Positions 1 to 16,138 of a stretch of DNA of 64,000 bases are shown here, piece by piece. A program made the translations under genes and the position numbers. Every line of letters begins with the position of its first letter. Position 1 is the first letter of the stretch. Under the pieces are notes generated by a model that did no database searches, was not told the origin of the DNA, and was given only the letters and a program-made list of their open reading frames with translations. This DNA is from Brachyspira murdochii DSM 12563 (GTDB taxonomy: Bacteria; Spirochaetota; Brachyspiria; Brachyspirales; Brachyspiraceae), in assembly GCF_000092845.1 (NCBI RefSeq), contig NC_014150.1, forward strand, positions 3,168,704-3,232,703, written 5' to 3'.

Positions 1-58
1 TATGAATTACCTTACATTTAAGACGATTTTAGTATGATTTAGTATTAATTTTATACTT

Positions 59-128
59 GCACTTTCGCGAAGCGTGCCTACGGCAGCAACTTTGGCGAAG
101 CCCACCTGCGGTGTGCGGCGGGAAAAAG
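59..128. repeat. GC-rich intergenic island, repeat family 2
   Basis: A sharp GC-rich block inside very AT-rich DNA upstream of the first DUF285 gene. Its segment TTCGCGAAGCGTGCCT (about 66-81) recurs exactly, in reverse complement, near 62371-62386. The adjoining ACTTTGGCGAAGCCC also recurs there with one change (ACTTTGGCTAAGCCC on the opposite strand). No reading frame is visible in it. I take it as a dispersed non-coding repeat; its function is unknown. Confidence 0.55.
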
Positions 129-141
129 TTGAATAAAAAAA

Positions 142-170
142 TTGACAAACTTAAAAATTTTCAGTATATA
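142..170 (+). promoter_or_regulatory. sigma-70-type promoter for the DUF285 gene cluster
   Basis: A perfect -35 TTGACA (142-147) is followed after a 17-base spacer by a -10 TATATA (165-170), 79 bases before the first gene of the tandem cluster. The GC-rich island ends just upstream. No comparable promoter is obvious before the second to fourth paralogues, so they may be co-transcribed, but I cannot show this. Confidence 0.55.
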
Positions 171-248
171 TAAATAAGTATTATTATTAGTAGTTAATTT
201 AGTGCTGCTATTTATATATATTAAAATTTATAATGAGGATATGAGATG

Positions 249-2837
249 ATGAAAAAATATAAACCAACAACAAAAGAAGAATTAAAAAGATTAGTATTCA
301 CCAACAACGGTATAAAACTTAGTTGTATTGATACAAGTCTTATTACAGATATGAGCGACCTTTTTAATAAAAGTGAAAGAAAAGATTTTGATGGCATAGA
401 AGAGTGGGATACTTCTAATGTTGAGAATATGGCTTATATGTTTGCATATATGGACTACAATGTTTTGGGACAATATTCAATGACAGAGTTTAATTCTAAT
501 TTAAATAATTGGAATGTATCAAAAGTGAAAAACATGATTTATATGTTTGCTTATTGTACATATTTTAATCAGCCTTTAAATAAATGGGACGTTTCAAATG
601 TGGAAAATATGTCTGGCATGTTTTTGGGTGCTAAAAAGTTTAATCAGCCTTTAAATAATTGGAATGTATCTAAAGTGAAAGATATGAGCGATATGTTTCA
701 TAGCTGTGAAGTATTTAATAGACCTTTGGACAAATGGGATGTTTCTAATGTTAAAGATATGTCTAATATGTTTAATGTGGCTTTGAAATTTAATCAGAAT
801 ATAAATAATTGGAATGTATCTAATGTTGAAGATTTATCAAAGACGTTTCGTTATTGTAAAGCTTTTGATCAGCCTCTTAATGATTGGGACGTATCTAATG
901 TGAAAAATATGCAACATATATTTTCGGACTGTGAAAATTTTAATCAGCCTTTAGATAAATGGGATACTTCTAATGTTGAAAGTATGGAATTTGCATTTAG
1001 AGCATGCGGTAAATTTAATCAGCCTTTAAATAGCTGGAATATGTCTAAAGTAACAAATATAGAGCATATGTTTGCTTTTACACACGAATTTAATCAGCCT
1101 CTTGATAAATGGGATACAAGAAATGTCATTAGTGTAATGCTGTTGTTTGCCTATGCACACAAGTTTGATCATTATGAATCTTTAGCAAATTGGAATTTAG
1201 ACAGTTTACAAGCTATAAATATAATTTGTGATGATAAGGATATGGATAAATTACCTACAAGAATTCAAGTATATAGGCAGGCATTTTTTCCTAAGGCCGA
1301 TATTATAAGTATAACAAAATTTAATGTTAAAGAAATATATGAGCTTATTGCAGATGATAAAAATAAAAAAGTTGTAAGATTGAAAAAAAGACTTGAAAGT
1401 GATTTCTCATCAGAGCTTTCATTTGTTACAAATAATTATAATTTCAAAACTATAGAAAAAGCAGAAAAGTATGCTGAAAGAAATTACAATGCTAAAAAAT
1501 ATGATAAGAAACTTGAATTTATAAAAAAGTGCCATGTATTAATAAAAGATAAATCAAGAGAAGTGAATATAAATCTTATAAAGTATATATATTCAGAATA
1601 TTTGTCTTTAAAGAAAACTATTAAAAAATTAGAAAAAATTGATAATATGGTTAATTTGCTTGATTTAAAATCATTTGTGAATTTTACTAAAGAGATTTAT
1701 TTAAAAAATCAAGATGAAGTTATCACTGCTTTTGTTTATGCTATGTACGGAGGAGATAAAGCTTTAAAGAAAATATCAGAATTAATGTATACTATTGAAT
1801 CAAAAAATCTCCTTACAATGATAAGCTTCAATATAGAAAGCAGATATGCTCAGAGTTTATTATATAAAATATATATAAATTCAACTAAAAGTGCAATTCG
1901 TAAAGAAGCAGTAGAAATGATTAATGACTTACTTGAAAAAATTAATATAGGCTATACTGAATTTAGATTAAGATGTATGCCTAATTTGGGATTTAATTCT
2001 AAAGGTGAAAAAGAATTAAATAAAGATTATAAATTAATTGTCAATAATGATTATACTTTAACTTTATTCGATATAAAAAATAATAAAGAATTAAAAAAAG
2101 TACCTCAAAGTATTGATAAAAAATTAAAAGAAGAAATAAAAGAATTAGGTAAAGAAGTAGATAAGTTTATTAATCATATCTCACATATTTTAGGTATTAT
2201 GTTAATAAACGGCGATATATTAAGCTGCGATTTATTTAAAGAAGTTTTTATTGATAATTATTTAATGAATAAATTTAGTTCTGGTTTAATATGGAACTTG
2301 TATGATAAAGATAAAAACTTTATAACAACTTTCAGATATACAAGCGATGGAACTTATACAAATTCTGAAAATGAAAAAATAAAAATTAATGCTGATAATT
2401 TTATAAGTTTGGCAAGTCCTATAGAAATGGACGATGAAACTATAGATAAATGGAGAAAACAGCTTGAAGATTGCCAATTATCACAGCCTATAAATCAATT
2501 AACACTTATAAAATTAGATAAAGATAATTTGAAAAAAGAAATAAAAAAGATAAAAAATATAGATACAAGCTACGGAGCTTTTAAATTCTTTGCTAAAAAA
2601 TATGAAATGCATAGCAATGATGTATTAGAAGATAATGTAACATATACATTTACATCAAATGATGGAGATATTTTTACAATGTCTGCAAAAGTTGATGAGG
2701 ATATAGAATATGATGATTTAGTAAATATTACTATCGATTTTAAAAAAGATAAAAATAAAAAAGAAATAAGTAAAAGATTTGTTTATACATTTTTAGTATT
2801 TATCATTTTGGATTTTAGACTTACAGATTTATTTTAA
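249..2837 (+). CDS. DUF285 (BspA-like) repeat protein with DUF4132-like C-terminus, paralogue 1
   Basis: 862 residues. Residues ~1-45 form a conserved cap (KPTTKEELKRLVF, then DTSLITDMSDLF). About ten 25-residue DUF285 units follow (FNQPLxxWDxSNVxxMxxMF), alternating between a DKWDTSNV type and an NNWNVSKV type, plus one degenerate unit. The C-terminal ~450 residues end in a block typical of DUF4132/MolR proteins: IWNLYD, TFRY, SLASPIEMD, IDKWRKQLED, then QPINQL. There is no signal peptide or lipobox, unlike classical BspA surface proteins, so a cytoplasmic location is inferred. ATG 249 is preferred to ATG 246 because AGGA (236-239) then sits nine bases from the start, exactly as in paralogue 3. 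It heads four tandem paralogues. Function unknown; annotation as a surface protein on repeat similarity alone would be doubtful. Confidence 0.85.
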   Translation: MKKYKPTTKEELKRLVFTNNGIKLSCIDTSLITDMSDLFNKSERKDFDGIEEWDTSNVENMAYMFAYMDYNVLGQYSMTEFNSNLNNWNVSKVKNMIYMFAYCTYFNQPLNKWDVSNVENMSGMFLGAKKFNQPLNNWNVSKVKDMSDMFHSCEVFNRPLDKWDVSNVKDMSNMFNVALKFNQNINNWNVSNVEDLSKTFRYCKAFDQPLNDWDVSNVKNMQHIFSDCENFNQPLDKWDTSNVESMEFAFRACGKFNQPLNSWNMSKVTNIEHMFAFTHEFNQPLDKWDTRNVISVMLLFAYAHKFDHYESLANWNLDSLQAINIICDDKDMDKLPTRIQVYRQAFFPKADIISITKFNVKEIYELIADDKNKKVVRLKKRLESDFSSELSFVTNNYNFKTIEKAEKYAERNYNAKKYDKKLEFIKKCHVLIKDKSREVNINLIKYIYSEYLSLKKTIKKLEKIDNMVNLLDLKSFVNFTKEIYLKNQDEVITAFVYAMYGGDKALKKISELMYTIESKNLLTMISFNIESRYAQSLLYKIYINSTKSAIRKEAVEMINDLLEKINIGYTEFRLRCMPNLGFNSKGEKELNKDYKLIVNNDYTLTLFDIKNNKELKKVPQSIDKKLKEEIKELGKEVDKFINHISHILGIMLINGDILSCDLFKEVFIDNYLMNKFSSGLIWNLYDKDKNFITTFRYTSDGTYTNSENEKIKINADNFISLASPIEMDDETIDKWRKQLEDCQLSQPINQLTLIKLDKDNLKKEIKKIKNIDTSYGAFKFFAKKYEMHSNDVLEDNVTYTFTSNDGDIFTMSAKVDEDIEYDDLVNITIDFKKDKNKKEISKRFVYTFLVFIILDFRLTDLF

Positions 2838-2937
2838 TTATAACAAATAATTTTTAGGCATCATAGTTTTGTGTCTTCTATAAAAATATAATTGATTTTT
2901 ATAATATTATATATCCATATTGAAATTAGGGGAATTG

Positions 2938-5340
2938 ATGAATAAACATAAACCAGCAGCAAAAGAAGAACTTAAAAAATTAGTATTTACTGACGGTATA
3001 AAACTTAGCGATGTAGATACAAGCCTTATTACAGATATTAGTGAACTTTTTCAGAAAAGTGAAAGAAAAGATTTTGAAGGCATAGAGGACTGGGATACTT
3101 CTAATGTTGAAAATATGTCTTGGATGTTTAGAGAATGTTTAAGTTTTAATCAGCCTTTAGACAAATGGGATACTTCTAATGTTACAAATATGAGCGGTAT
3201 GTTTAGTCTTGCTAAAACTTTTAATCAGAATATAAATAATTGGAATGTTAGTAAAGTTGAAGATATGAGTTATATGTTTAATGCATGTGGCTCTTTTAAT
3301 CAGCCTCTTAATAATTGGGACGTATCCAATGTAAAAACTATGGAGGCTATGTTTCATTCCGCCATTTCTTTTAATCAGCCTTTAGATAAATGGAATACTT
3401 CAAAAGTTGAAAACATGCATGATATGTTTTGCCGATGTAAACAATTTAATCAGCCTTTAAATAGCTGGAATGTATCCAATGTAAAAACTATGGAATCTAT
3501 GTTTTATTCTGCCGATTCTTTTAATCAGCCGCTTGATAAATGGAATACAAAAAGATTAAGTAAAATGTACTCAATGTTTAAATATACTGACAGTTATGAC
3601 TCTTATGACTCATTAGCAAATTGGGATTTAAGTAAAGTATCAGATATTAGTGATTTCTGTTCTAACTATGAAAGATTCTATGAAAAATTGCCTTTAAGAC
3701 TTAGAGTATATATGCAGGCATTTTATGGTTCTCACAAAGTTTATGTACCTATAGAAAATAATGAAGAATATGATGATGATTTTATATCAGAAGAATATGA
3801 TTTAGTATCAAGAGATTATATAACTATCACAAAAGAGAATGTCAAAGAAGTATATAATGCAATATTAAAAGATACAAATAAAAAAGTTATGGCATTAAAA
3901 AAGAAATTAGAAACAGAGTTTAGTGAAGAACTTTCATCTGTTACTGATGATTATAATTTCAAAACTATAGAAGAAGCAGAAAAGTATGTGGAAAACAATT
4001 ATAATAAAAAAGATGATAAGAAGGTAAGCTTTATAAGTAATTATAAGGTTTTGATAAAGGGTAAATCAAGAGAAGTTGAAAATAAAGTTTTAAAATATAT
4101 ATATTTAGAGTATTTGGTTCTAAAAAGAGATGTTAAAAAATTAACACAAATTGACAATATAGTTAATTTACTTGATAAAGAATCATTTATAGAGTTTATC
4201 AAAAATATTTATAATGAAACGAATAAAGAAACCTCTGCTTTTATTTACGGAATATATGGAGGAGATAAAGCCGTAAAAAATATATATAAAAAAGAAAAAG
4301 ATACTAAACTTTCACTTTTAATAATTAAATTAAATATAGAAAGCAAATATGCACTTAGATTATTATATGAAATATATTCAAGTACAAAAAAATCTGAAAT
4401 ACGTTATGAAGCTTATAATCTAATTGAGGAAGTGATTAAAAAAATGAATATTAGCTATGAGGAGTTTGAATTAAGATTTTCTCCTGATTTCAGCTTTAAT
4501 TCTCAAGGTGAGAGACTATTAAATGAAGATTATAAATTAATTTTGAATGGTGATTATTCTTTGAGTCTTTTTGATATAAAAAATAATAAAGAATTAAAAA
4601 AGATTCCTCAAAACTTTAATGAAGATTTAAAAGATGAAATAACAAAGTTAAGAAAAAAAATTCCTTCTTTTATGAAAGATACTTCTTCTCTTTTAGCGAT
4701 TTTATTAGCAAGCGGAGAGAAATACAATTATGATGTATTCAAAGATGTTTTCATTGATAATGCTATGATGAATAGATTTGCTTCATCTTTTATATGGAAT
4801 TTATATGATAATAACAATAATTTCATAACTACTTTCAGATATTCAGGCGACGGAAGTTATTCAAACTGTGAAGATGAAGAAGTAAAAATTGATGATAATA
4901 GTTTTGTAAGTTTGGCAAGCCCTGTAGAAATGGACGAACACACTATAGATAAATGGAGAAAGCAGCTTGAAGATTATGAAATAGCACAGCCTTTACAGCA
5001 ATTAACTGTTATAAAATTAGATAAAGATAATTTGAAAAGTGAAATAGAAAAAATAGATAATTCAGAAATAGCCTATGGTACTTTTAAGGCTTTTGGTGCA
5101 AGATATGAAATGTATTCTGAGTATATAGGATACGATGTCGTTAAAAGCTATTCATTAAAAACAAAGAATGGAGATACTTTTACTATAGATGCAGATGTTA
5201 ATTCTAAAACCGATTTTCATGACAGAGTAAAAATTAATATTTATTTTGATAATGAAAATGGTGAAGAGGTGAGTAAAAGATTTATTTATACTTTATTGGT
5301 ATTAATGATTTGGGATTTTAGACTTACAGATTTATTTTGA
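2938..5340 (+). CDS. DUF285 repeat protein with DUF4132-like C-terminus, paralogue 2 (fewer repeats)
   Basis: 800 residues with the same architecture as paralogue 1: N-terminal cap, DUF285 repeats, then a DUF4132-like region ending in FRLTDLF. It has only about seven full repeat units plus a degenerate one, against ten in the others, so three units have been lost or never gained. It also carries an acidic insert (EEYDDDFISEEYD) after the repeats. The start at ATG 2938 follows AGGGGAA at 2928-2934; the upstream in-frame TTG at 2920 would put that ribosome site inside the gene. The block IDKWRKQLEDYEIAQPLQQL is the clearest DUF4132 signature in the cluster. No signal peptide. The gap to the preceding gene is 100 bases. 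Confidence 0.85.
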   Translation: MNKHKPAAKEELKKLVFTDGIKLSDVDTSLITDISELFQKSERKDFEGIEDWDTSNVENMSWMFRECLSFNQPLDKWDTSNVTNMSGMFSLAKTFNQNINNWNVSKVEDMSYMFNACGSFNQPLNNWDVSNVKTMEAMFHSAISFNQPLDKWNTSKVENMHDMFCRCKQFNQPLNSWNVSNVKTMESMFYSADSFNQPLDKWNTKRLSKMYSMFKYTDSYDSYDSLANWDLSKVSDISDFCSNYERFYEKLPLRLRVYMQAFYGSHKVYVPIENNEEYDDDFISEEYDLVSRDYITITKENVKEVYNAILKDTNKKVMALKKKLETEFSEELSSVTDDYNFKTIEEAEKYVENNYNKKDDKKVSFISNYKVLIKGKSREVENKVLKYIYLEYLVLKRDVKKLTQIDNIVNLLDKESFIEFIKNIYNETNKETSAFIYGIYGGDKAVKNIYKKEKDTKLSLLIIKLNIESKYALRLLYEIYSSTKKSEIRYEAYNLIEEVIKKMNISYEEFELRFSPDFSFNSQGERLLNEDYKLILNGDYSLSLFDIKNNKELKKIPQNFNEDLKDEITKLRKKIPSFMKDTSSLLAILLASGEKYNYDVFKDVFIDNAMMNRFASSFIWNLYDNNNNFITTFRYSGDGSYSNCEDEEVKIDDNSFVSLASPVEMDEHTIDKWRKQLEDYEIAQPLQQLTVIKLDKDNLKSEIEKIDNSEIAYGTFKAFGARYEMYSEYIGYDVVKSYSLKTKNGDTFTIDADVNSKTDFHDRVKINIYFDNENGEEVSKRFIYTLLVLMIWDFRLTDLF

Positions 5341-5383
5341 TTATAATAAATAATTTTTAAATTTATAATTAGGATATTAGATT

Positions 5384-6571
5384 ATGAAAAAATACAAACC
5401 AGCAACAAAAGAAGAACTCAAAAAATTAGTATTTACTGACGGTATAAAGCTTAATTGTGTTGATACAAGTCTTATAACGGATATGAGCAATCTTTTTCAT
5501 GAAAGTAAAAGAAAAGATTTTAAAGGCATAGAAGATTGGGACGTTTCTAATGTTGAGGATATGTCTTATATGTTTGCATATATGGACTATAATTTTATTT
5601 TAGACTTATCAAAAATAGATTTTAATCCTAATTTAAATAATTGGAATGTATCTAAAGTTAAAAAGATGAGTAATATGTTTGCCTATTGTTCTAATTTTAA
5701 TCAGCCTTTAGATAAGTGGGATACTTCTAATGTTTCCGATATGTCATTTATGTTTTTGGGGGCAAAAGTTTTTAATCAGCCTCTTAATGATTGGAATGTT
5801 TCTAATGTTAAAGATATGAGAGGTATGTTTAAGTTAGCAGAAAGTTTTAATCAGCCTTTGGATAAATGGGATACTTCTAATGTTGAAGATATGTCTTGTA
5901 TGTTTAATCTGGCAAAAAACTTTAATCAGCCTTTAAATAATTGGAATATATCTAAAGTTGAAGATTTATCAAATATGTTTAGTTATTGTACTATTTTTAA
6001 TCAGCCTCTTAACGATTGGGACGTATCTAATGTAAAAAATATGGAATCTTTGTTTGATAGTTGTTCTAATTTTAATCAGCCTTTAGATAATTGGGATACT
6101 TCTAATGTTGAAAATATGTTTAGAATGTTTGATGATTGTAAAAACTTTAATCAGCCTTTAAATAGCTGGAATGTATCCAATGTAACAAATATTGCATACA
6201 TGTTTATGTTGGCAAAAAGTTTTAATCAGCCGCTTGATAAATGGAATACAAAAAAAGTAATTAGTATAGCATTTTTATTTCAATATGCCGATAAGTTTGA
6301 TCATTATGAATCTTTAGAACATTGGAATTTAGATAAATTAAAAGATATAACTTTAATTTGTGATGATGAAAATAAATTGCATACAAGACTTAAAGTATAT
6401 ATGCAAGTTTTTTATCCTAAAGAAGATTATATAACTATAACAAAAGATAATGTTAAAGAAATATATAATCTTATTGCGAAAGACAAAAATAGAAGAATCT
6501 CTAGATTAAGAAAAAAACTTGAAAGTGATTTTTCTAAGGAGCTTTCATCTATTACAAAAAATTCTGATTAA
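5384..6571 (+). pseudogene. C-terminally truncated DUF285 repeat protein, paralogue 3
   Basis: 395 codons with an intact N-terminal cap and ten DUF285 units plus a degenerate one. It ends at SSITKNSD, where the full-length paralogues continue for about 460 residues with SSVTDDYNFKTIEEAEKY and the DUF4132-like region. DNA after the stop (about 6572-6600) still resembles the paralogues' continuation (ACTATAAAAAAATAATG against ACTATAGAAAAAGCAGA). The next gene's ribosome site starts at 6617, so the rest of the domain is deleted. The repeat part is open and has a normal ribosome site (AGGA 5371-5374), so a repeat-only protein may still be made. I class it as a truncated gene because the whole C-terminal domain is missing. 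Confidence 0.75.
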
Positions 6572-6626
6572 AAAACTATAAAAAAATAATGAAAAATGCT
6601 ATATTAAAATCAATTTGGAGAGAATT

Positions 6627-9215
6627 ATGAGAAAATACAAACCAGAAACAAAAAAAGAATTAAAAAAATTAGTATTTACTGATGGTATAAAACTTTGTTA
6701 TATTGATACAAGTCTTATCACAGATATGAGCAAACTTTTTTATGAAAGCAAAAGAAAAGATTTTGAAGGTATAGAAGATTGGGACGTTTCTAATGTTACA
6801 AATATGGATATGATGTTTGCCTATATGGGCTATAATGCGTTGGTAAGATATTCAAATATAGATTTTAATCCTGATTTAAGTAATTGGAATGTATCTAAAG
6901 TAAAAAGTATGAATAATATGTTTGCTCATTGTTCTAATTTTGACCAGCCTTTGGAGAAATGGGACGTTTCAAATGTTGAAGATATGTCCTTTATGTTTTA
7001 TGGTGCGAATGAGTTTAATCAGCCTTTAAATAATTGGAATGTATCAAAAGTTAAAAATATGAGAGGTATGTTTCAGGAATGCGAAAATTTTAATCAGCCT
7101 TTGAATAAATGGGATACTTCTAATGTTGAAGATATGTCTAATATGTTTACTCGGGCAAAAGTTTTTAATAAGCCTTTAAATAAATGGAATACTTCTAAAG
7201 TTAAAGATTTATCAAGTATGTTTGCATATTGTGATATTTTTAATCAGAACATTAATGATTGGGACGTTTCTAATGTTACAAATATGGATTCTTTGTTTAG
7301 GCAATGCGAAAAATTAAATCAGCCTTTTGATAAATGGGATACTTCTAATGTTGTAAACATGGAAAAGACATTTTTCTCATGCATGAAATTTGATCAGCCT
7401 TTAAATAGTTGGAATGTGTCTAATGTAGAAAATATGGATATGATGTTTTATATGGCACAAACTTTTAATCAGCCTCTTGATAAATGGAATACACAAAAAC
7501 TAATCACTGCTGCGGGACTATTTAGATTTGCCTATAAGTTTGATAATTATGAGTCTTTAGAAAATTGGAATTTAGATAATTTAGAAGAAGTTGGTACTTT
7601 TTGCGATGATGAGGATAAATTACATACAAGACTTAAAGTATATATGCAGGCCTTTTATCCTAAAGAAGATTATATAACTATAACAAAATTTAATGTTAAA
7701 GAAATATATAATCTTATTGCAAAAGATAAAAATAAAAGAATTGTAAGATTGAGAAAAAGAATTGAAAGTGATTTTTCTAATGAGCTTTCATTTGTTACAA
7801 ATGATTATAATTTCAAAACTATAGAAAAAGCAGAAAAGTATGCTCAAAAAAAATATAATGCTAAAAAAGAAGATAAAAAACTTGAATTTATAAAAGATTG
7901 CCATGTTCTAGTAAAAGATAAATCAAGAGAGGTAAATATTACAGTGATAAAGTATATATATTCAGAGTATTTATCTTTAAAAAGAATGATTAACAGATTA
8001 GAAAAAATTGATAATATAGTTAACTTGCTTGACTTTGAATCATTTTTTAAGTTCATTAGAGAAATTTATTTAGAAAATCAAAACACAGAGATTGCAGGTT
8101 TTATTTATGCTATGTACGGAGGAGATGAAGCTTTAAAAGAGATATCTGAATTAATATTATTAGGTATTGATTCAAAAGTTTTCCTTATAATGATAAAATT
8201 CAATATAGAAAGCAGATATGCTCAAAGTTTATTATATGAAATATATTCAGATACAAAGAAAAATGAAGTTCTCAAAGAAGCTGGAAAAATGATTAATGAA
8301 TTGATTGAAAAAATGAATATTGGTTATACTGAATTTAGATTAAGATGTATGCCTAATTACGGATTTACTTCTCAAGGTGAAAAAATATTAAATGATGATT
8401 ATAAATTAATTTTGAATAATGATTATTCTGTAACCTTATTTGATATAAAAAATAATAAAGAATTAAAAAAGATTCCTCAAAACCTTGATGAAAAATTAAA
8501 AGAAGAAGTCAAAGAATTGAAAAAAGAAATACCAAAGTTTATTAACCATAGCACTTCTATTTTGAGTATTACATTAATAGACGGTGATATATACAGCTAT
8601 GATTTGTTTAAAGAAGTTTTTATTGATAATTATTTAATGAATAAATTAGCATCTTCTTTGATATGGAATCTGTATGATAAAGATAAAAAAATTATAACAA
8701 CTTTTAGATATTCAGCTGATGGGAGTTATTCAAATTGTGATGATGAAGATGTAAAGATTAATTCTAACAATTTTATAAGTTTGGCAACTCCTGCAGAAAT
8801 GGATAATAAGACTATAGATAAATGGAGAAAAAAGCTTGAGAATTATGAGTTATCACAGTCAATAAATCAATTGACACTTATAAAATTGGATAAAAAGAAT
8901 TTGAAAAAAGAAATAAAAAAGATAAAAAGTATAGAAGCAAGTTACGGAGCTTTTAAGGCATTTGCTAAAAGATATGATATGTATACCAATGATGTATTTG
9001 GATATAATGATACTATAACATATACATTTCCTGCAAATGACGGAGATATTTTTACAATGTCTTCAAAAGTCGATGCAGATACAGAATACGATGAGCCAGT
9101 AGATATAACTATTGATTTTAAAAAGAGTGAAAATAAAAAAGAAATCAGTAATAGATTTGTTTATACTTTTTTGGTATTTATAATTTCAGATTTTAGGCTT
9201 ACTGATTTATTTTAG
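6627..9215 (+). CDS. DUF285 repeat protein with DUF4132-like C-terminus, paralogue 4
   Basis: 862 residues, the same length and layout as paralogue 1: cap (YKPETKKELKKLVFTDGIKL), ten DUF285 units plus one degenerate unit, a helical linker, and the DUF4132-like block (SLIWNLYDKDKK, TFRYSADGSYSN, IDKWRKKLENYELSQ) with the shared terminus FRLTDLF. ATG 6627 is chosen because GGAGAG lies at 6617-6622; an upstream TTG (6615) would begin before that site. No signal peptide. Clusters of this kind usually arise by tandem duplication, and the near-identical repeats make unequal exchange likely. Function unknown. Confidence 0.85.
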   Translation: MRKYKPETKKELKKLVFTDGIKLCYIDTSLITDMSKLFYESKRKDFEGIEDWDVSNVTNMDMMFAYMGYNALVRYSNIDFNPDLSNWNVSKVKSMNNMFAHCSNFDQPLEKWDVSNVEDMSFMFYGANEFNQPLNNWNVSKVKNMRGMFQECENFNQPLNKWDTSNVEDMSNMFTRAKVFNKPLNKWNTSKVKDLSSMFAYCDIFNQNINDWDVSNVTNMDSLFRQCEKLNQPFDKWDTSNVVNMEKTFFSCMKFDQPLNSWNVSNVENMDMMFYMAQTFNQPLDKWNTQKLITAAGLFRFAYKFDNYESLENWNLDNLEEVGTFCDDEDKLHTRLKVYMQAFYPKEDYITITKFNVKEIYNLIAKDKNKRIVRLRKRIESDFSNELSFVTNDYNFKTIEKAEKYAQKKYNAKKEDKKLEFIKDCHVLVKDKSREVNITVIKYIYSEYLSLKRMINRLEKIDNIVNLLDFESFFKFIREIYLENQNTEIAGFIYAMYGGDEALKEISELILLGIDSKVFLIMIKFNIESRYAQSLLYEIYSDTKKNEVLKEAGKMINELIEKMNIGYTEFRLRCMPNYGFTSQGEKILNDDYKLILNNDYSVTLFDIKNNKELKKIPQNLDEKLKEEVKELKKEIPKFINHSTSILSITLIDGDIYSYDLFKEVFIDNYLMNKLASSLIWNLYDKDKKIITTFRYSADGSYSNCDDEDVKINSNNFISLATPAEMDNKTIDKWRKKLENYELSQSINQLTLIKLDKKNLKKEIKKIKSIEASYGAFKAFAKRYDMYTNDVFGYNDTITYTFPANDGDIFTMSSKVDADTEYDEPVDITIDFKKSENKKEISNRFVYTFLVFIISDFRLTDLF

Positions 9216-10380: not shown

Positions 10381-10511
10381 TGTTTTAATTTCTATAATAA
10401 TATTTACAAAAATCAAAAAAAATGTAGCCTTTATTTATTATTAGTATATTGTAATAAATGTTAGAATAATATAAAATAATGTTAGTAAAATCTAAAAAAT
10501 GGAGTTTTTAT

Positions 10512-11027
10512 ATGTCAATAATAAAAGAAGAAACAGTAAAATTATTAAATGAGCATTTAAATTTGGAACATTATTCAGCTAATTTGTATTTTAACATGGC
10601 TGGCTGGTGTGAGAAAGAAGGCTTAAAAGGCTGCAGTGCTTTTTTATATAATCATTCAGCTGAAGAGCATACACATTTGGAGAAGTTTAGAGAGTTTATA
10701 AATAAAGCTGGCGGGCAGGCTATAATGGGTGAGATGAAAGCTCCGGAGTTTAGTTTTAATAATGTAGGAGAGCTTTTTGAAAAGATAGTTAAGCATGAAG
10801 AGTATATTACTTCTTGTATTAATAAACTCGTTGGTATAGCTATTGATAATAAAGACTATGTTACATTAAAGTTTTTGGAGTGGTTTGTTGAAGAGCAATT
10901 AGAAGAGGAAGAATTATTTAATGATATTATTAAAAAGATAAAGATTTTAGGAGATTTAAAAGGTAGAAATCTTTATACATTTGATAAATATATAGGTAAT
11001 TTAGATTCTAAAGAACATAATTCATAA
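10512..11027 (+). CDS. ftnA: non-haem ferritin, copy 1
   Basis: 171 residues of a bacterial ferritin four-helix bundle, which stores iron by oxidising Fe2+ in a 24-mer shell. Ferroxidase-type residues are visible: LNLEHYSANLYFNMAGWC (Glu and Tyr of helix A), SAEEHTHLEKF (the ExxH of helix B) and VEEQLEEEELF (ExxxQ-type helix D). The length is normal for FtnA. ATG 10512 follows GGAG at 10501-10504; an in-frame upstream start would add eleven residues with no ribosome site. A second copy at 15608 shares most of the sequence, and the two flank the polyamine operon. No Fur-like operator is obvious. Confidence 0.9.
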   Translation: MSIIKEETVKLLNEHLNLEHYSANLYFNMAGWCEKEGLKGCSAFLYNHSAEEHTHLEKFREFINKAGGQAIMGEMKAPEFSFNNVGELFEKIVKHEEYITSCINKLVGIAIDNKDYVTLKFLEWFVEEQLEEEELFNDIIKKIKILGDLKGRNLYTFDKYIGNLDSKEHNS

Positions 11028-11081: not shown

Positions 11082-11924
11082 TCATATTATCATAAGCATT
11101 TCTCTTATAACCTTGCATGCTGTTATAGTTGATACTTTACTCCCATCATAATCTGGTGAAAGCTCATTAACATCTGCTCCTACTATATTTAATCCTCTCA
11201 TATCAAGTATAGCTTTCTGAAGTTCCTTATAAGTAAGTCCGCCTGCTTCTGGAGTTCCAGTTCCTGAAAATATAGAAGGGTCTAAAACATCTAGGTCTAT
11301 TGTAATATATACTGGTTTATCTTTTATTTTTTCTTTTGCTTCTAATATAGTATTTGCTGAAAACTTTTCTAATATAGTATGCTTTTTAGCAAATTCATGT
11401 TCTTCTTTAGTCATAGACCTTATGCCAAATTGATATAATTCTTTACTTTTCATAAGCTGATAACATCTTTGCATAACGCATGCATGACTTAAACCTTCAC
11501 CTAAATAATCATCTCTTAAATCAGCATGGGCATCGAATTGTATTAATACTATATCATTATATTTTTCAAATACAGCCTTAAATGCAGGCAGGGTTACTAA
11601 ATGTTCCCCGCCAATCATAAAAGGTATTTTGCTGCTTTCTACAATTTTTTTAGAAGTTTGATATATGATATCAAGAGCCTTCTCTCTATTTCCCATAGGA
11701 AGCTCTAAATCTCCATAATCAAAAACTTTCAAATCTTCCAAATCTTTTTCCTGATAAGGAGAATAAGTTTCTATACCAAAAGATTCTTGTCTTATAGATT
11801 GAGGTGCAAATCTTGTTCCCGGTCTGTAGCTAACAGTTCCATCATAAGGAGCACCGAATACCACTATATTGCTTTCTTCAAAACTACAATCCAATGCCAT
11901 AAATATATTAGGCTGATTATTCAT
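11082..11924 (-). CDS. speB: agmatinase (arginase/agmatinase family)
   Basis: 280 residues. It hydrolyses agmatine to putrescine and urea with two Mn2+ ions in the cytoplasm. The metal-binding motifs of the ureohydrolase family are present: GGEHL, then FDAHADLRDDYLGEGLSHAC, and ITIDLDVLDPSIFSGTGTPE. It is the last gene of the speD-ADC-speE-speB operon. Its start overlaps the speE stop by eight bases (ATGAATAA), implying translational coupling. An arginase is less likely, because a decarboxylase making agmatine lies in the same operon. Confidence 0.92.
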   Translation of the reverse strand: MNNQPNIFMALDCSFEESNIVVFGAPYDGTVSYRPGTRFAPQSIRQESFGIETYSPYQEKDLEDLKVFDYGDLELPMGNREKALDIIYQTSKKIVESSKIPFMIGGEHLVTLPAFKAVFEKYNDIVLIQFDAHADLRDDYLGEGLSHACVMQRCYQLMKSKELYQFGIRSMTKEEHEFAKKHTILEKFSANTILEAKEKIKDKPVYITIDLDVLDPSIFSGTGTPEAGGLTYKELQKAILDMRGLNIVGADVNELSPDYDGSKVSTITACKVIREMLMII

Positions 11925-12777
11925 GATGAGACTGCTCCAATAGTTTTTTTACATAAGTAGGCAAAGCAAAACAGCCCTTATGTATATCAAGATTATAATA
12001 TTTTGTATCCAAATTATGTTTAAGCCACTCTTCTTCTTTGAGGTCTTTTATAGGGTCTATAGTTTTTGAGGCAAATCCGAAAAGCCAATGTCCGCTAGGG
12101 TAGGTTGGTATATGAGCCTGATATACTTTAGCTATATTAAATGTTTCGTATATATTTCTGTGAGCCCTTTGCATATTGTAGGCATAATCACTGTAATAAG
12201 GACATTCATGCTGATTTACGAGTATTCCGTCTTTACTTAATGCTTTATGACAGTTGCCGTAAAACTCTCTTGTGAATAATCCTTCACCAGGTCCAAATGG
12301 ATCTGTGGAGTCTACTATTATTAAATCGTATTCTCCTTCTTTAGCATCTCTTACAAACTTTAATCCGTCCTGAAAATATAAACTTACTCTTTTATCGCTT
12401 AATCCAGATGTTGTTGATGGAAAATATTTTTTGCATACTTCTACAACTTGTTCATCTATTTCTACCATGTCAATCTTTTCTATAGTTTTGTAGCGTGTTA
12501 ATTCTCTTACAGTGCCTCCGTCTCCGCCTCCTATTACAAGTACATTTTTTATATTGCTGTTGCTTGCCATTGGGATATGCACTATCATATCATGATAAAT
12601 AAACTCATCTTTTTCCGTTACCATAATAAGACCGTCTAGTGTGAAGAACTTGCCGAATTCTTTTGATTCAAATACATCTATTCTTTGAAAATTAGTCTGT
12701 GCTGAATATAATTGTTTTTCTACTTTGATTGAAAATTTTGATTCCTCAGTATGATTTTCTGTATACCAAAGCTCCAT
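11917..12777 (-). CDS. speE: spermidine synthase
   Basis: 286 residues. It transfers the aminopropyl group of decarboxylated SAM to putrescine. It begins with the WYTENHTEESKFSIKVEKQL tetramerisation strand region typical of the family. The Rossmann glycine loop is VLVIGGGDGGTVREL, and the catalytic region is LIIVDSTDPFGPGEGLFTREFY, with the conserved Asp. Its product, spermidine, ends the pathway encoded by this operon. It starts one base after the decarboxylase stop and overlaps speB by eight bases. Confidence 0.95.
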   Translation of the reverse strand: MELWYTENHTEESKFSIKVEKQLYSAQTNFQRIDVFESKEFGKFFTLDGLIMVTEKDEFIYHDMIVHIPMASNSNIKNVLVIGGGDGGTVRELTRYKTIEKIDMVEIDEQVVEVCKKYFPSTTSGLSDKRVSLYFQDGLKFVRDAKEGEYDLIIVDSTDPFGPGEGLFTREFYGNCHKALSKDGILVNQHECPYYSDYAYNMQRAHRNIYETFNIAKVYQAHIPTYPSGHWLFGFASKTIDPIKDLKEEEWLKHNLDTKYYNLDIHKGCFALPTYVKKLLEQSHHE

Positions 12778-12778
12778 T

Positions 12779-14224
12779 TTATTCCTCCATTACTTGTATA
12801 TTATTTAATTCTATATCTTCTGTGCCTTGCATTACACAGCCTTTTTCTTTTGCATATTTTATATATGTTATAATCTCTTGAGTGATTTCTTCCCCCGGGG
12901 CTATTATAGGTATACCGGGAGGATATGCCATTACAAACTCTGCTGAAGTTTTGCCTATTGAGTTATCTAATTTTACAGAATGCTTATTACTATAAAATGC
13001 CTTTTGAGGGCTATATTTTACTATCGGATTAATATATTCATGATCAAATAAATGAGTATAGTCTTTTTTATACTTTCTTTTTAATTCAGCCAATGCTGCT
13101 ATAAGTCGTTCAAGCTCAAGATTTCTGTCGCCTACTGATATTATAGCCAAAACATTTCCTATATCTCCAAACTCTATTTGTATATTATATTCATCACGCA
13201 ATTTATCATAAACTTCAATTCCAGCAAGACCTATTTTTCTAGTATGTATGCATAGCTTTGTATTATCAAAAGAATATATATCATCATTATTTATTATCTC
13301 TTCACCGAATGCATAATAATCGCCTATTTTATTAACTTCTTTTCTAGCATAGTCTGCCATATTAATAACTGTTTTAAAAATTTCTTTACCGTTAATAGCC
13401 AATTCGCTTCTTGCTATGTCCAAACTGCTCATAAGTATATAGCTTGGGCTTGTAGTCATAGTAAGATTGATTATCTGCCTGACATGATTACCATTGACAT
13501 TATTATTTATTAAAAGTGCCGATGACTGAGTGAGAGAGCCTCCTGTTTTATGGAGACTTACACAGCTCATATCGGCACCTGCCTCCATAGCACTTATTGG
13601 AAGATTATCTCCAAAATAAAAATGTGTGCCATGTGCTTCATCTGCTAGGACAAGCATGTTGTTTTTATGAGCTAATTCTACTATTTTTTTTAAGTCAGAG
13701 CATATTCCATAGTAGGTGGGGTTATTAACAAATATAGCCTTAGCATCAGGATTTTTCTCTATTGCTTTTTTTATATTTTCTACAGACATTCCCAAAGATA
13801 TACCCAATTCCTTATTAACCCCCGGATTTACATATATAGGCACAGCACCGCATAAGACAAGAGCATTAATAGCACTTTTATGCACATTTCTAGGAAGTAT
13901 TATTTTATCTCCGTATTTGCAGGCAGTAAATATCATAGCCTGAACAGCTGATGTAGTGCCTCCAACCATGAAAAATGATTCTTTAGCTTTGAATGCTTCA
14001 GCCATTAATTCCTGAGCTTCTTTTATAACTCCTATAGGATGAGTAGCATTGTCTAAAGGCTTTGATGAATTATAATCTATTTGAACGCATTTTTCTCCGA
14101 GTACATCTATTAAAACTTTGGTGCTTTTTCCCTGCTTATGTCCCGGTACATCGAAACTTACTATTCTTTTTTTTCTGTATTGTTTTAATGCTTCAACAAT
14201 AGGAGTTCTCTCTTGTCTATTCAT
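12779..14224 (-). CDS. speA: PLP-dependent arginine decarboxylase (Orn/Lys/Arg decarboxylase family)
   Basis: About 481 residues, of the short, fold-I aspartate-aminotransferase type found in Bacillus SpeA. Visible motifs are DVPGHKQG near the N-terminus, the PLP aspartate in [14 protein letters not shown], and the PLP-binding lysine in SLHKTGG. A C-terminal domain follows ([18 protein letters not shown]). Arginine is the likely substrate because agmatinase is encoded downstream; lysine or ornithine cannot be excluded by sequence alone. Start: ATG 14224 overlaps the speD stop by eight bases (ATGAATAG), the same pattern as at the speE-speB junction. ATG 14236 is also open, but its AGGAAG site lies only two bases away. 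Confidence 0.85.
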
Positions 14225-15029
14225 TATCGTATACATTGCTTCCTGAATATATTTCTATCATTTCCTGACGAAGATCATTAGATATTTTTAGTCGTTCTTT
14301 AGGGGTAAACTCATTAACATCTTTTCCAAAGAGATAATTACTGAGATTAAGTTCTTTAATTATCATCATAGTATGAAATATATTTGCACTATATATATTT
14401 ATGTCATGAGCATCGTATCTTTCTTGAATTTCTTCGCTTATATAATCCTGTATACTTGTTATTTTATGATCTATAAAGCATTTTTTTCCGTCTATTGTAC
14501 GGGTAAATCCTCTGACTCTGTAGTCTATGGATATTATATCAGAATCAAAGCATTGTATTAAATAGTTAAGTGTTTTAAGAGGTGATATTTTACCGCAAGT
14601 AGATACATCAATATCAACTCTGAATGATGATATGCTCTTATTTGGGTGATACTCTGGGTATGTATGTACTGTTATATGGCTTTTGTCCAAATGTGCACAT
14701 ACTGTTTCTTTTTCTACAAATGAAATATTGCCTTTATTGCAGGTTTCATCAAGCACAGTATCATTTAAAGGTTCTTCTGATATTAATATAGTTACGCTTG
14801 CCCCTTGAGGATCATAATCCTGCTTTGATATGTTTAGTATATGAGCACCTATTAAATCAGTTACATTGCAAAGTATTTCTGTTAATCTTTTAGAGTTATA
14901 CTGCTCATCAATATAATCTATATATTTTCTTTGCTCTGGTTCTGTTTTGGCATAGCAGACATCGTAGATATTGAAACTTAAACTTTTTGTAAGATTATTA
15001 AATCCATATAGCTTAATCTTGTCTGGCAT
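14217..15029 (-). CDS. speD: S-adenosylmethionine decarboxylase proenzyme (E. coli type)
   Basis: 270 residues, close to the 264-residue E. coli enzyme (class 1A). The proenzyme cleaves itself to form a pyruvoyl group. The processing site is visible as [13 protein letters not shown], with the Ser as the future pyruvoyl residue. The N-terminus [17 protein letters not shown] also matches the family. It makes decarboxylated SAM, the aminopropyl donor for SpeE. ATG 15029 has a perfect AGGAGG seven bases upstream; an in-frame GTG at 15044 would overlap that site. It heads the polyamine operon and has a ~350-base structured leader. Confidence 0.93.
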
Positions 15030-15380
15030 AAAAATCCTCCTCACATCTTGTGCAGAAGGAAATCTTATATAAAAAAATACAATTATTTTTCTAACATAAG
15101 TTTCCTTACATAAAGATAAATAATTGTACTTGATTAGATCTTTAACTATTTTTTAGTTTATTTGAGCCTATACAGTAATTTTATACTTTTACTGCTCATG
15201 TTGATCATTCACAAGTACGTTTATTCCTTATAAATAATTTAACACGATTGAATCGCAAATCGGCTTTTGACCCGGCTGTCCGTATGGCCTCTTTTCCCCT
15301 TTTTTGAAGGTTAAGGTCAAAATAATTTTACCAAAATGGATGCAATAGCAATCAAATAAACCACTCGATTTTCTATTACG
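15030..15380 (-). promoter_or_regulatory. structured 5' leader of the polyamine operon (candidate riboswitch)
   Basis: About 350 bases lie between the promoter and speD. The part at 15240-15380 is unusually complex for this genome. In the minus-strand RNA, TTTTGACC (plus 15315-15322) pairs perfectly with GGTCAAAA (plus 15265-15272). This closes a region holding a CCTT/AAGG hairpin and a GGCC...AGCC hairpin (plus 15274-15289), in other words a three-way-junction-like fold. CGATT/AATCG forms another stem (plus 15245-15262 region), and CAGTAA/TTACTG one further downstream. The attenuator-like hairpin closes the leader. I could not match it to SAM, lysine, guanidine, cobalamin, TPP, THF or T-box consensus features. 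No leader peptide with a good ribosome site was seen. Confidence 0.5.
15071..15128 (-). terminator. attenuator-like hairpin just upstream of speD
   Basis: In the minus-strand transcript, an 11-bp perfect stem (15118-15128 with 15078-15088) encloses a second small hairpin with a GAAA loop. It is followed directly by seven U residues (15071-15077). It lies ~30 bases before the speD ribosome site, where a transcription attenuator would sit. The stem is AT-rich, so its strength in vivo is uncertain. Confidence 0.5.
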
Positions 15381-15386
15381 CGACTT

Positions 15387-15414
15387 ATTATATACTTTTT
15401 TTATTTTTCTGCAA
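15387..15414 (-). promoter_or_regulatory. promoter of the spe operon leader
   Basis: On the minus strand TTGCAG (plus 15409-15414), a 16-base spacer and a perfect TATAAT (plus 15387-15392) predict a start near 15380. That is about 350 bases before the speD start codon. Confidence 0.6.
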
Positions 15415-15607
15415 GTGTTTTATTAATAAAAAATAAATTTATAATATTATAAAAGTTATTAATACATGATATTTTTAGAAAATATGTTATAATATATAAA
15501 CATATTACTAATCTTTCATTCATTTTAAGTATTGTAAAGATTAATACATTAATATAAAATAAAAAAGGTTATAAAATATATATTTATTAAAAAAAGGAGT
15601 TTTTATT

Positions 15608-16138
15608 ATGTCTATAATCAATAATGAAGAAACAATTAAAGCATTGAATGTTCAATTAAATAAAGAATTGTATTCAGCAAGTCTTTATTTTAATATGGCT
15701 AGCTGGTGTGATAAACAAGGACTTAAAGGCTGCAGTAAATTCTTATACGGCCATTACAGAGAAGAGCTAGAACATTTTGAAAAGTTTAGAGATTTTATTA
15801 ATAAAGTAGGAGGACAAGCTACTATCGGAGAAATGCATGCCCCTCAGAATGATTTTAAATCAGTAGAAGACTTATTTGAAACTGTAGTTAAACATGAAGA
15901 ATATATTACTTCATGCATAAATGAACTTGTAGGATATTCTTTTGATAAAAAAGATTATATTACTTTAAGATTCTTAGATTGGTTTATACAAGAGCAGCTT
16001 GAAGAACAGGAATTATTTAATGATATTCTTGATAAAATAAAAATCTTGGGTGATTTAAAAGGCAGAAATTTATATACATTTGATAAAGCCATTGGTAATT
16101 TGGATGCTGAAAAACATGGTACAAGTGTAAGTTTATAA
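15608..16138 (+). CDS. ftnA: non-haem ferritin, copy 2
   Basis: 176 residues, a paralogue of the ferritin at 10512 with the same iron-site pattern: LNKELYSASLYFNMASWC, HYREELEHFEKF, IQEQLEEQELF. The sequence upstream of both starts is nearly the same (GGAGTTTTTAT), which points to duplication of gene plus translation signal. An extended -10 (TGTTATAAT, 15485-15493) lies upstream, and a TAATCTTT/AAAGATTA stem could form in the leader. lptB follows 32 bases later on the same strand, so the two may be co-transcribed. Confidence 0.92.
   Translation: MSIINNEETIKALNVQLNKELYSASLYFNMASWCDKQGLKGCSKFLYGHYREELEHFEKFRDFINKVGGQATIGEMHAPQNDFKSVEDLFETVVKHEEYITSCINELVGYSFDKKDYITLRFLDWFIQEQLEEQELFNDILDKIKILGDLKGRNLYTFDKAIGNLDAEKHGTSVSL

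What the first reader, a model, noticed from the sequence alone, without database searches (positions are those of the whole stretch)
249..9215. Tandem family joining DUF285 repeats to a DUF4132/MolR-like domain, with no export signal
Four head-to-tail genes carry BspA-like 25-residue repeats, normally found on surface proteins, but lack any signal peptide or lipobox. Their last ~450 residues match the DUF4132 pattern (IWNLYD, TFRY, SPxEMD, WRKQLEDxxxxQPxxQL). DUF4132 proteins such as E. coli MolR/YehI are cytoplasmic and lie near MoxR/VWA genes. A repeat scaffold fused to this domain suggests an intracellular recognition system with a variable repeat array and a constant effector-like end. 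The function is open.
Basis: partly seen in the sequence, partly recalled or inferred. Interest (0 to 1): 0.75.

Follow-up and report, generated by a model that had tools for sequence, protein, structure and literature searches.

The report
Cytoplasmic leucine-rich-repeat proteins of Brachyspira
A gut spirochaete carries a family of large proteins, apparently kept inside the cell, that join a leucine-rich-repeat arm of a kind usually called a surface repeat to a conserved domain of unknown job; in the gene cluster studied the arm is nearly the same from species to species, so each copy probably grips its own fixed partner rather than chasing changing targets.

Summary
The observation largely holds. 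Four head-to-tail genes at 249-9212 carry DUF285 repeats; three (g1, g2, g4) also carry DUF4132 (72-82 bits, cut-off 27). The third (g3) stops after the array. The cluster starts 6.3 kb before the window. The genome has 9 DUF285-DUF4132 fusions, 5 DUF4132 proteins without DUF285, and 16 DUF285 ORFs, none with a signal-like stretch. The repeats model as a leucine-rich-repeat solenoid; the C-module has no significant Foldseek hit.

Some dispersed paralogues do gain or lose whole units. Truncated g3 is kept in 7 genomes under constraint. Best reading: cytoplasmic adaptor-effectors, each array fixed on its own conserved partner, sharing one DUF4132 output module of unknown activity. An LRR-DUF4132 protein is already reported in Leptospira, so this is a new variant of a known kind. 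It makes a stated open question (are signal-less PARCEL/DUF285 genes real?) testable.

The parts
249..2837 (+). g1: DUF285-DUF4132 fusion, 862 aa (stop included)
   Evidence: orthologues
405..1190 (+). g1 DUF285 / leucine-rich-repeat units (residues 53-314): one of 35 aa, eight of 25, one of 27
   Evidence: model residues 1-354 match leucine-rich repeats
1434..2834 (+). g1 C-module (residues 396-862): helical part, DUF4132 (613-751), C-terminal YugN/KA1-like domain (about 762-860)
2085..2501 (+). DUF4132 (PF13569) match in g1
2938..5340 (+). g2: DUF285-DUF4132 fusion, 800 aa, shorter array (six units of 25, one of 27)
5384..6571 (+). g3: 395 aa, DUF285 array plus linker only, no DUF4132; the same array-only form in seven genomes
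6627..9215 (+). g4: DUF285-DUF4132 fusion, 862 aa
1..176 (+). end of a dispersed G+C-rich intergenic repeat between g0 and g1 (not part of the proteins)
   Evidence: 59 matches in the genome, itself included

Best explanation
g1, g2 and g4 (with g0 just upstream and five dispersed copies) are cytoplasmic adaptor-effector proteins. Shown or modelled: an N-terminal cap and leucine-rich-repeat solenoid of 7-10 DUF285 units in the cluster genes, linker helices, a helical half, a DUF4132 domain and a small YugN/KA1-like C-terminal domain, with no signal-like stretch; in the cluster each orthologue keeps its array nearly unchanged across species. Inferred: the array is the targeting arm and each paralogue binds its own conserved, probably endogenous partner inside the cell; the DUF4132 module supplies a shared output on that partner, more likely binding or scaffolding than catalysis because no known enzyme fold or motif was recognised. 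The two halves also exist apart: g3 and six other DUF285-only ORFs are arrays without the module, and a stand-alone module of about 465 aa is found in several species. Array-only proteins could therefore compete for or regulate the same partners.
For: Domain hits. Full-chain model pLDDT 88.6, pTM 0.61: residues 1-354 align to leucine-rich repeats of LRRC8A (Z 16.8), LRRK1 (16.0), Roco (15.7) and BT_0210 (10.0). No signal-like stretch in 16 of 16 DUF285 ORFs. Same repeat architecture in 42 of 44 orthologue arrays in 14 genomes. Array dN/dS by simple counting 0.11-0.29 in 20 of 20 comparisons outside g1 and in 7 of 8 (the eighth, g3 against L047, 0.34). Array identity at or above that of the rest in 21 of 22 comparisons; own against G013: g4 0.90 vs 0.63, g0 0.94 vs 0.78; one housekeeping yardstick, ValS, 0.95. 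Array-only g3 in 7 genomes, array dN/dS 0.20-0.34. ORFs of 461-478 aa with the module alone: 12 of 73 loci. Six of 25 unit positions take 57% of paralogue and 60% of orthologue differences, as expected of exposed residues.
Against: No partner, localisation or activity is shown by any search. The hydropathy test cannot exclude signal-independent export. pTM 0.61 leaves the relation between the halves uncertain, and Foldseek alone gave no match for the array or the module at E 0.001. Dispersed paralogues show whole-unit gains and losses, or divergent arrays, beside near-identical C-modules (L060/L061 C 0.95, array 0.71; L056/L059 0.88 and 0.59; L075/L076 0.91 and 0.79), which fits a changing target better. 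The g1 array has dS 0.01-0.03 in 8 of 9 comparisons (0.13 in the ninth) against 0.08-0.22 in the rest, so inter-species recombination, not only constraint, keeps it alike; its dN/dS (0.48-2.5) is then uninformative. Cluster arrays against G013 and G009 have dS 0.22-0.37 where ValS has 0.50-0.52, so transfer may add to array conservation outside g1 too. Broken copies in some genomes argue against an essential role.
Confidence: 0.5

Rival explanations
1. Intracellular immune-type sensors (anti-phage or anti-plasmid): the repeat arm recognises foreign proteins and the DUF4132 end acts as effector.
For: Tandem and dispersed paralogues, cross-species exchange of a g1 segment, broken copies in some genomes, array differences in some dispersed paralogues, restriction or defence-type genes near some copies; DUF285-like arrays in 113 of 50,697 phage records.
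Against: No PADLOC match for g1-g4 or for three long DUF4132 proteins. Arrays fixed and under purifying selection across species in the cluster, g1 aside. Neighbours differ from copy to copy.
Confidence: 0.22
2. Surface or secreted host-contact proteins (BspA-like) exported by a route without a classical signal, as Brachyspira genome papers annotate their BspA-like genes.
For: PMC2897892 and PMC3532143 place bspA genes among outer-membrane proteins (passages); PARCEL/DUF285 repeats elsewhere occur in surface lipoproteins (PMC2996958, abstract).
Against: No signal-like stretch in 16 of 16 DUF285 ORFs. The papers' bspA genes were not matched to these ORFs here. E. coli yehI, a DUF4132 protein, is not annotated as exported.
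Confidence: 0.12
3. Orphan immunity or decoy proteins that bind incoming toxins of competing gut bacteria.
For: An Imm51 gene lies about 4 kb upstream of the first DUF285 ORF; a SUKH-family gene lies beside the L038 fusion.
Against: Only these two such neighbours appeared among the neighbours run through Pfam, which were a part of all neighbours; the proteins are far larger than typical immunity proteins (recall); arrays do not diversify across species in the cluster.
Confidence: 0.07
4. Mobile repeat cassettes without cellular function (pseudogenes or reservoirs of variants), one of the options left open by the PARCEL paper for signal-less ORFs.
For: Broken copies exist; g3 lacks the C-module.
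Against: dN/dS well below 1 in C-modules and in arrays other than g1, also in g3; repeat architecture kept in 42 of 44 orthologue arrays.
Confidence: 0.04

Closest known systems
Leptospira interrogans LIC_12901 (LRR + WGR + DUF4132), as tabulated in PMC11674859
   Same: Spirochaete protein joining leucine-rich repeats to DUF4132; signal peptide listed as absent there
   Different: It has a WGR domain and 1616 residues; here no WGR, a DUF285-type array, 750-900 residues and 9 fusion copies
PARCEL / DUF285 / TIGR02167 repeat proteins (PMC2996958)
   Same: 25-residue unit and family HMMs
   Different: Many described ones are membrane-targeted with variable unit number; these are untargeted (the paper's 'category H'), many are fused to DUF4132, and unit number is fixed in the cluster
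E. coli YehI (DUF4132; yehF WGR-family, yehL MoxR and yehP VWA nearby)
   Same: DUF4132 domain
   Different: No repeats in its annotation; here no adjacent MoxR and no WGR
BspA-like leucine-rich-repeat surface proteins
   Same: Leucine-rich-repeat solenoid (BT_0210 matched at Z 10.0; that it is BspA-like is recall)
   Different: No export signal; fused to DUF4132

Membership tests
DUF285 (PF03382) / PARCEL | Match to PF03382 and TIGR02167 over the curated cut-off | tested here: met
   All four genes
DUF285 (PF03382) / PARCEL | Tandem 25-residue units | tested here: met
   W-to-W spacings of 25 in all four
DUF285 (PF03382) / PARCEL | Dyad symmetry of the coding DNA | tested here: inconclusive
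   Crude test only: single-strand folding of three arrays no stronger than synonymous shuffles (z +0.4 to +2.0; the C-module control gave z -3.1). The paper used palindrome motif discovery
DUF4132 (PF13569) | Match over the curated cut-off of 27 bits | tested here: met
   g1 72.4, g2 82.1, g4 75.3 bits
DUF4132 (PF13569), g3 | Match over the curated cut-off | tested here: not met
   No hit in g3 at E up to 1
MolR/YehI-type locus | WGR domain in the protein or beside it | tested here: not met
   No WGR hit in g1-g4 or in the genome at E 0.01 (the control rang in E. coli)
MolR/YehI-type locus | MoxR gene adjacent | tested here: not met
   Strong AAA_3 gene at C1:633398, nearest DUF4132 more than 200 kb away; a weak hit at window 29083-29475 is about 20 kb from g4
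MolR/YehI-type locus | VWA gene adjacent | not tested
   No VWA search was made in this genome
BspA-like surface proteins | Export signal | tested here: not met
   0 of 16 DUF285 ORFs by hydropathy proxy
BspA-like surface proteins | Leucine-rich-repeat solenoid | tested here: met
   Model residues 1-354, Z up to 16.8; Foldseek alone gave no hit at E 0.001
Known anti-phage defence systems (PADLOC) | Match to a PADLOC model | tested here: not met
   0 of 4 proteins at E up to 1

The most novel reading that the evidence does not exclude
DUF4132 is a general output module of bacterial cytoplasmic recognition proteins: different lineages plug different receptor scaffolds onto it (DUF285 arrays in Brachyspira, LRR-WGR in Leptospira, DUF5724 in another genus of the same family), each array being fixed on one endogenous partner whose disturbance is sensed, with array-only proteins such as g3 acting as built-in competitors.
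Probability: 0.2. Interest if true: 0.75.

Novelty: new variant of a known kind. Interest (0 to 1): 0.5.

Why it matters
The PARCEL paper left open whether signal-less DUF285 genes are pseudogenes, cytoplasmic proteins or annotation artefacts (PMC2996958, passages). Here all 16 DUF285 ORFs of one genome lack a signal-like stretch, nine are fused to a DUF4132 module, and the cluster orthologues examined (the g1 array apart) are under purifying selection, so they are very likely real and probably cytoplasmic. Genome papers that count Brachyspira bspA genes as surface proteins may need rechecking. The fixed arrays and the natural array-only and module-only relatives give a ready-made way to ask what a DUF285 array binds and what DUF4132 does.

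Tried and rejected
Positive selection on array faces: a simple count gave dN/dS 1.58 at six variable unit positions between paralogues, but those positions were picked for variability and are saturated; a codon model gave 0.31 and 0.48 in two genomes. Claim dropped. A comparison with omega fixed at 1 failed to run (attempted, error seen).

Fold of the C-module: Foldseek found nothing at E 0.001 or better. VIA-align gave middling matches for the last 100 residues (YugN-type Z 8.6-9.1, KICSTOR-GATOR1 7.6-8.5, KA1 about 5-6, RnlA 5.4-6.1) and common helical arrangements for the helical half. The DUF4132 core itself was barely tested by those matches, so no new-fold claim is made.

Long ORFs of 960-1202 aa in strain G79 looked like new architectures; those read in L067 contain runs of N, i.e. 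gaps.

A baseline from spermidine synthase failed because the query matched none of six other genomes; ValS was used instead, a single gene.

Viral contigs: no relative of the C-module confirmed. Literature searches: DUF4132 in 3 held papers; PARCEL terms; MolR/YehI/WGR (listing only beyond PMC8533742); Brachyspira with DUF285 in none; Brachyspira with leucine-rich repeat in 11, two Brachyspira genome papers opened for passages; DUF285 in 38, 20 listed, one opened; DUF5724/DUF7737/yehI/yehL/yehP. None seen to describe this fusion; most of the 38 and 645 papers were seen as listings or not at all, and the library lacks most subscription journals.

Dropped rows: of 73 loci, 12 were set aside as cut by contig ends, N-gapped or broken. 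One of the 12 stand-alone modules (L107) may be a fusion that lost its array. A3 used 44 of the 61 classed loci; A4 used 27 of 32 fusions (near-duplicates left out). The genome-contig search kept 80 of 114 confirmed stretches (73 loci) and the phylum searches saw 296 genomes of one phylum, so absence of the fusion outside Brachyspira is not proven. Of the 44 orthologue arrays, two (g1 in L077, g4 in L135) sit in interrupted ORFs but have the whole array.

Full report
WHAT IS THERE. The window lies at C1:3168704-3232703 of a 3,241,804-base single-contig genome. Of 73 related loci in named genomes 72 are Brachyspira; the size suggests B. murdochii (recall). Four ORFs run head to tail: g1 249-2834 (862 aa), g2 2938-5337 (800), g3 5384-6568 (395) and g4 6627-9212 (862). 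Pfam finds DUF285 in all four and DUF4132 in g1, g2 and g4. NCBIfam names the repeats PARCEL. The cluster begins before the window: at C1:3162440 and 3163047 start DUF285-only ORFs of 180 and 486 aa, and at 3165988-3168561 lies another fusion, g0, of 857 aa, with a peptidase-like ORF between (that name is read from sequence, not from a call).

GENOME CENSUS. PF13569 rings 14 times in the genome. Nine are fusions (g0, g1, g2, g4 and copies in L032, L036, L037, L038, L040); five have no DUF285 (L033 twice, L034, L035, L039). All 54 DUF285 matches fall in 16 ORFs: the nine fusions and seven array-only ORFs. None of the 16 has a signal-like stretch (at most 1.26 on the hydropathy scale; 11 hand-picked controls at least 2.30).

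ANATOMY. Each of g0, g1, g3 and g4 has an N-terminal cap, a first unit of 35 residues, eight units of 25 and one of 27; g2 has six of 25 and one of 27. Full-chain AlphaFold2: pLDDT 88.6, pTM 0.61. VIA-align places residues 1-354 on leucine-rich repeats (LRRC8A Z 16.8, LRRK1 16.0, Roco 15.7, Bacteroides BT_0210 10.0), though Foldseek alone gave no match at E 0.001. The C-module alone: pLDDT 88.7, pTM 0.80; a helical half, a mixed DUF4132 part and a last domain of about 100 residues like YugN and, weakly, KA1. Across 47 aligned modules the invariant residues are Y106, K271, K282, N325, W337, F350, R351, Y352, L376, W390, Q405, R498 and F499 of the model; I recognised no catalytic motif.

DISTRIBUTION. 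In the genus 25 of 26 genomes have DUF4132. With the fusion-type C-module as query, 28 of 296 genomes of the phylum match at E 1e-5: 25 Brachyspira, two of the same family, one further off; 23 of the 26 Brachyspira match at E below 1e-100. Whether DUF285 sits in the same ORF was not checked for each of these. Two genomes (G001, G019) have only weaker matches in ORFs of 495, 491 and 1074 aa, and G003 (88% complete) none. Among the 73 loci from named genomes, 32 are complete fusions, 12 ORFs of 461-478 aa hold the module alone, 17 are long DUF4132 proteins and 12 were unusable; one long protein is from a MAG labelled Ruminococcus, the rest are Brachyspira. No relative was confirmed in viral contigs. 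In two other genomes of the same family that were run through Pfam (G146, G065), DUF4132 comes with DUF7737, in G146 also with DUF5724, and without DUF285; the same DUF4132-DUF7737 pair is in G186 of the same phylum.

EVOLUTION OF THE ARRAY. The cluster is kept, with reordering, in other species. For 44 orthologue arrays of g0-g4 in 14 genomes (own included) the unit architecture is identical in 42; one g2 lost one unit and one g4 lost six (g4 of L043 has an extra W inside a unit of unchanged length). Array dN/dS by simple counting is 0.11-0.29 in 20 of 20 comparisons of g0, g2, g3 and g4. A partly overlapping set gives 0.12-0.18 for g0, g2 and g4 and 0.20 and 0.34 for g3. For g1 the ratio is 0.48-2.5 because array dS is only 0.01-0.03, 0.13 in one case. 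Array identity is at or above that of the rest in 21 of 22 comparisons of g0, g1, g2 and g4; the exception is g1 against L131 (0.88 vs 0.91). For g3, whose rest is only a linker, it is 3 of 4. ValS as a single yardstick is 0.95-0.98 identical with dS 0.15-0.52; cluster arrays have dS below it in the distant pairs (0.22-0.37 against 0.50-0.52 for G013 and G009).

RECOMBINATION. From about base 376 to 2090, g1 is mostly 93-100% identical to g1 of other species (one 100-base block at 86%, one at 92%); towards its end it is mostly 87-93% for L041-L043 (one block 96%), falling to 77-88% around the stop, while for L046 the last part stays 94-99%. A segment covering the array and half the module has therefore probably moved between species. 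Dispersed paralogues show another pattern: L060 and L061 have C-modules 95% alike but arrays 71% alike with 100 residues of unit difference; L076 and L078 differ by exactly two units at 98% and 97%; L056 and L059 by three at 88% and 59%; L075 and L076 have arrays 79% alike beside C-modules 91% alike without a unit difference. So unit gain, loss and array divergence do happen in the family, just hardly in the tandem cluster.

THE TRUNCATED g3. g3 ends just past the linker; homology to g4 runs about 15 bases beyond its stop. The same array-only form of 387-404 aa is found in seven genomes with array dN/dS of 0.20-0.34. It is a stable, probably functional protein, not a fresh wreck.

WHERE CHANGES FALL. 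Six of 25 unit positions (10, 11, 14, 15, 17, 18) take 57% of paralogue and 60% of orthologue differences against 24% expected. The ratio of paralogue to orthologue change is about the same at these as at other positions, so this marks exposed, weakly constrained positions and does not show selection for new targets. A counting estimate above 1 was not borne out by a codon model.

CONTEXT. Neighbours vary. Upstream of the own cluster are a methylase of the Eco57I type, an Imm51 gene and a TPR protein; the L038 copy has a SUKH and a GmrSD-like neighbour; in G009 the start of a type I methylase flanks the cluster and PDDEXK_2 genes lie near cluster genes in G005 and G004. No constant partner gene was seen among the loci looked at. 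The MoxR context of E. coli yehI is not reproduced; VWA was not searched.

LITERATURE. PMC2996958 (abstract and passages) defines PARCELs and leaves the status of signal-less ORFs open. PMC11674859 (passages) lists Leptospira LIC_12901 with LRR, WGR and DUF4132. PMC8533742 (passage) reports a DUF4132 gene, DRA0166, strongly upregulated on depletion of DdrO in Deinococcus. PMC2897892 and PMC3532143 (passages) place Brachyspira bspA genes among outer-membrane proteins; I did not match those genes to these ORFs. PMC9334617 (passages) only uses DUF4132 as a place name.

JUDGEMENT. The fusion is solid and the lack of a classical export signal is well supported. The adaptor-effector reading with fixed partners is the best fit at about one in two; the immune-sensor reading remains the main rival. 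Kind: new variant of a known kind.

Noticed in passing
window 1-176 (C1:3168565-3168879): A G+C-rich intergenic repeat between g0 and g1 belongs to a dispersed family: 59 matches in the genome, itself included.
   Followed up: partly
window 11917-12777: The spermidine-synthase-like protein matched none of six other Brachyspira genomes (without a positive control); the neighbouring polyamine-type genes at 11082-15044 (names read from sequence) may be a recent gain.
   Followed up: no
L045: In Brachyspira pilosicoli PC5538III the g0, g1 and g4 counterparts are all broken into several ORFs.
   Followed up: no
L060, L061, L056, L059, L057: Similar C-modules carry clearly different arrays, and C-module and array nearest neighbours disagree, suggesting array exchange among dispersed paralogues.
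   Followed up: partly
L031:5184-5528, L038:5272-8000: Imm51 lies near the own cluster, and SUKH and GmrSD-like genes lie beside the L038 fusion.
   Followed up: partly
L131:4772-5614, L136:2491-3060: PDDEXK_2 (nuclease family transposase) genes lie near cluster genes in two genomes.
   Followed up: no
window 10479-11027 and 15608-16138: Two similar ferritin-like ORFs flank the polyamine-type genes (read from sequence; name recalled).
   Followed up: no
L032:8683-10905 and 13781-15619: Two array-only ORFs each hold two DUF285 blocks in tandem with a second N-terminal cap inside.
   Followed up: no
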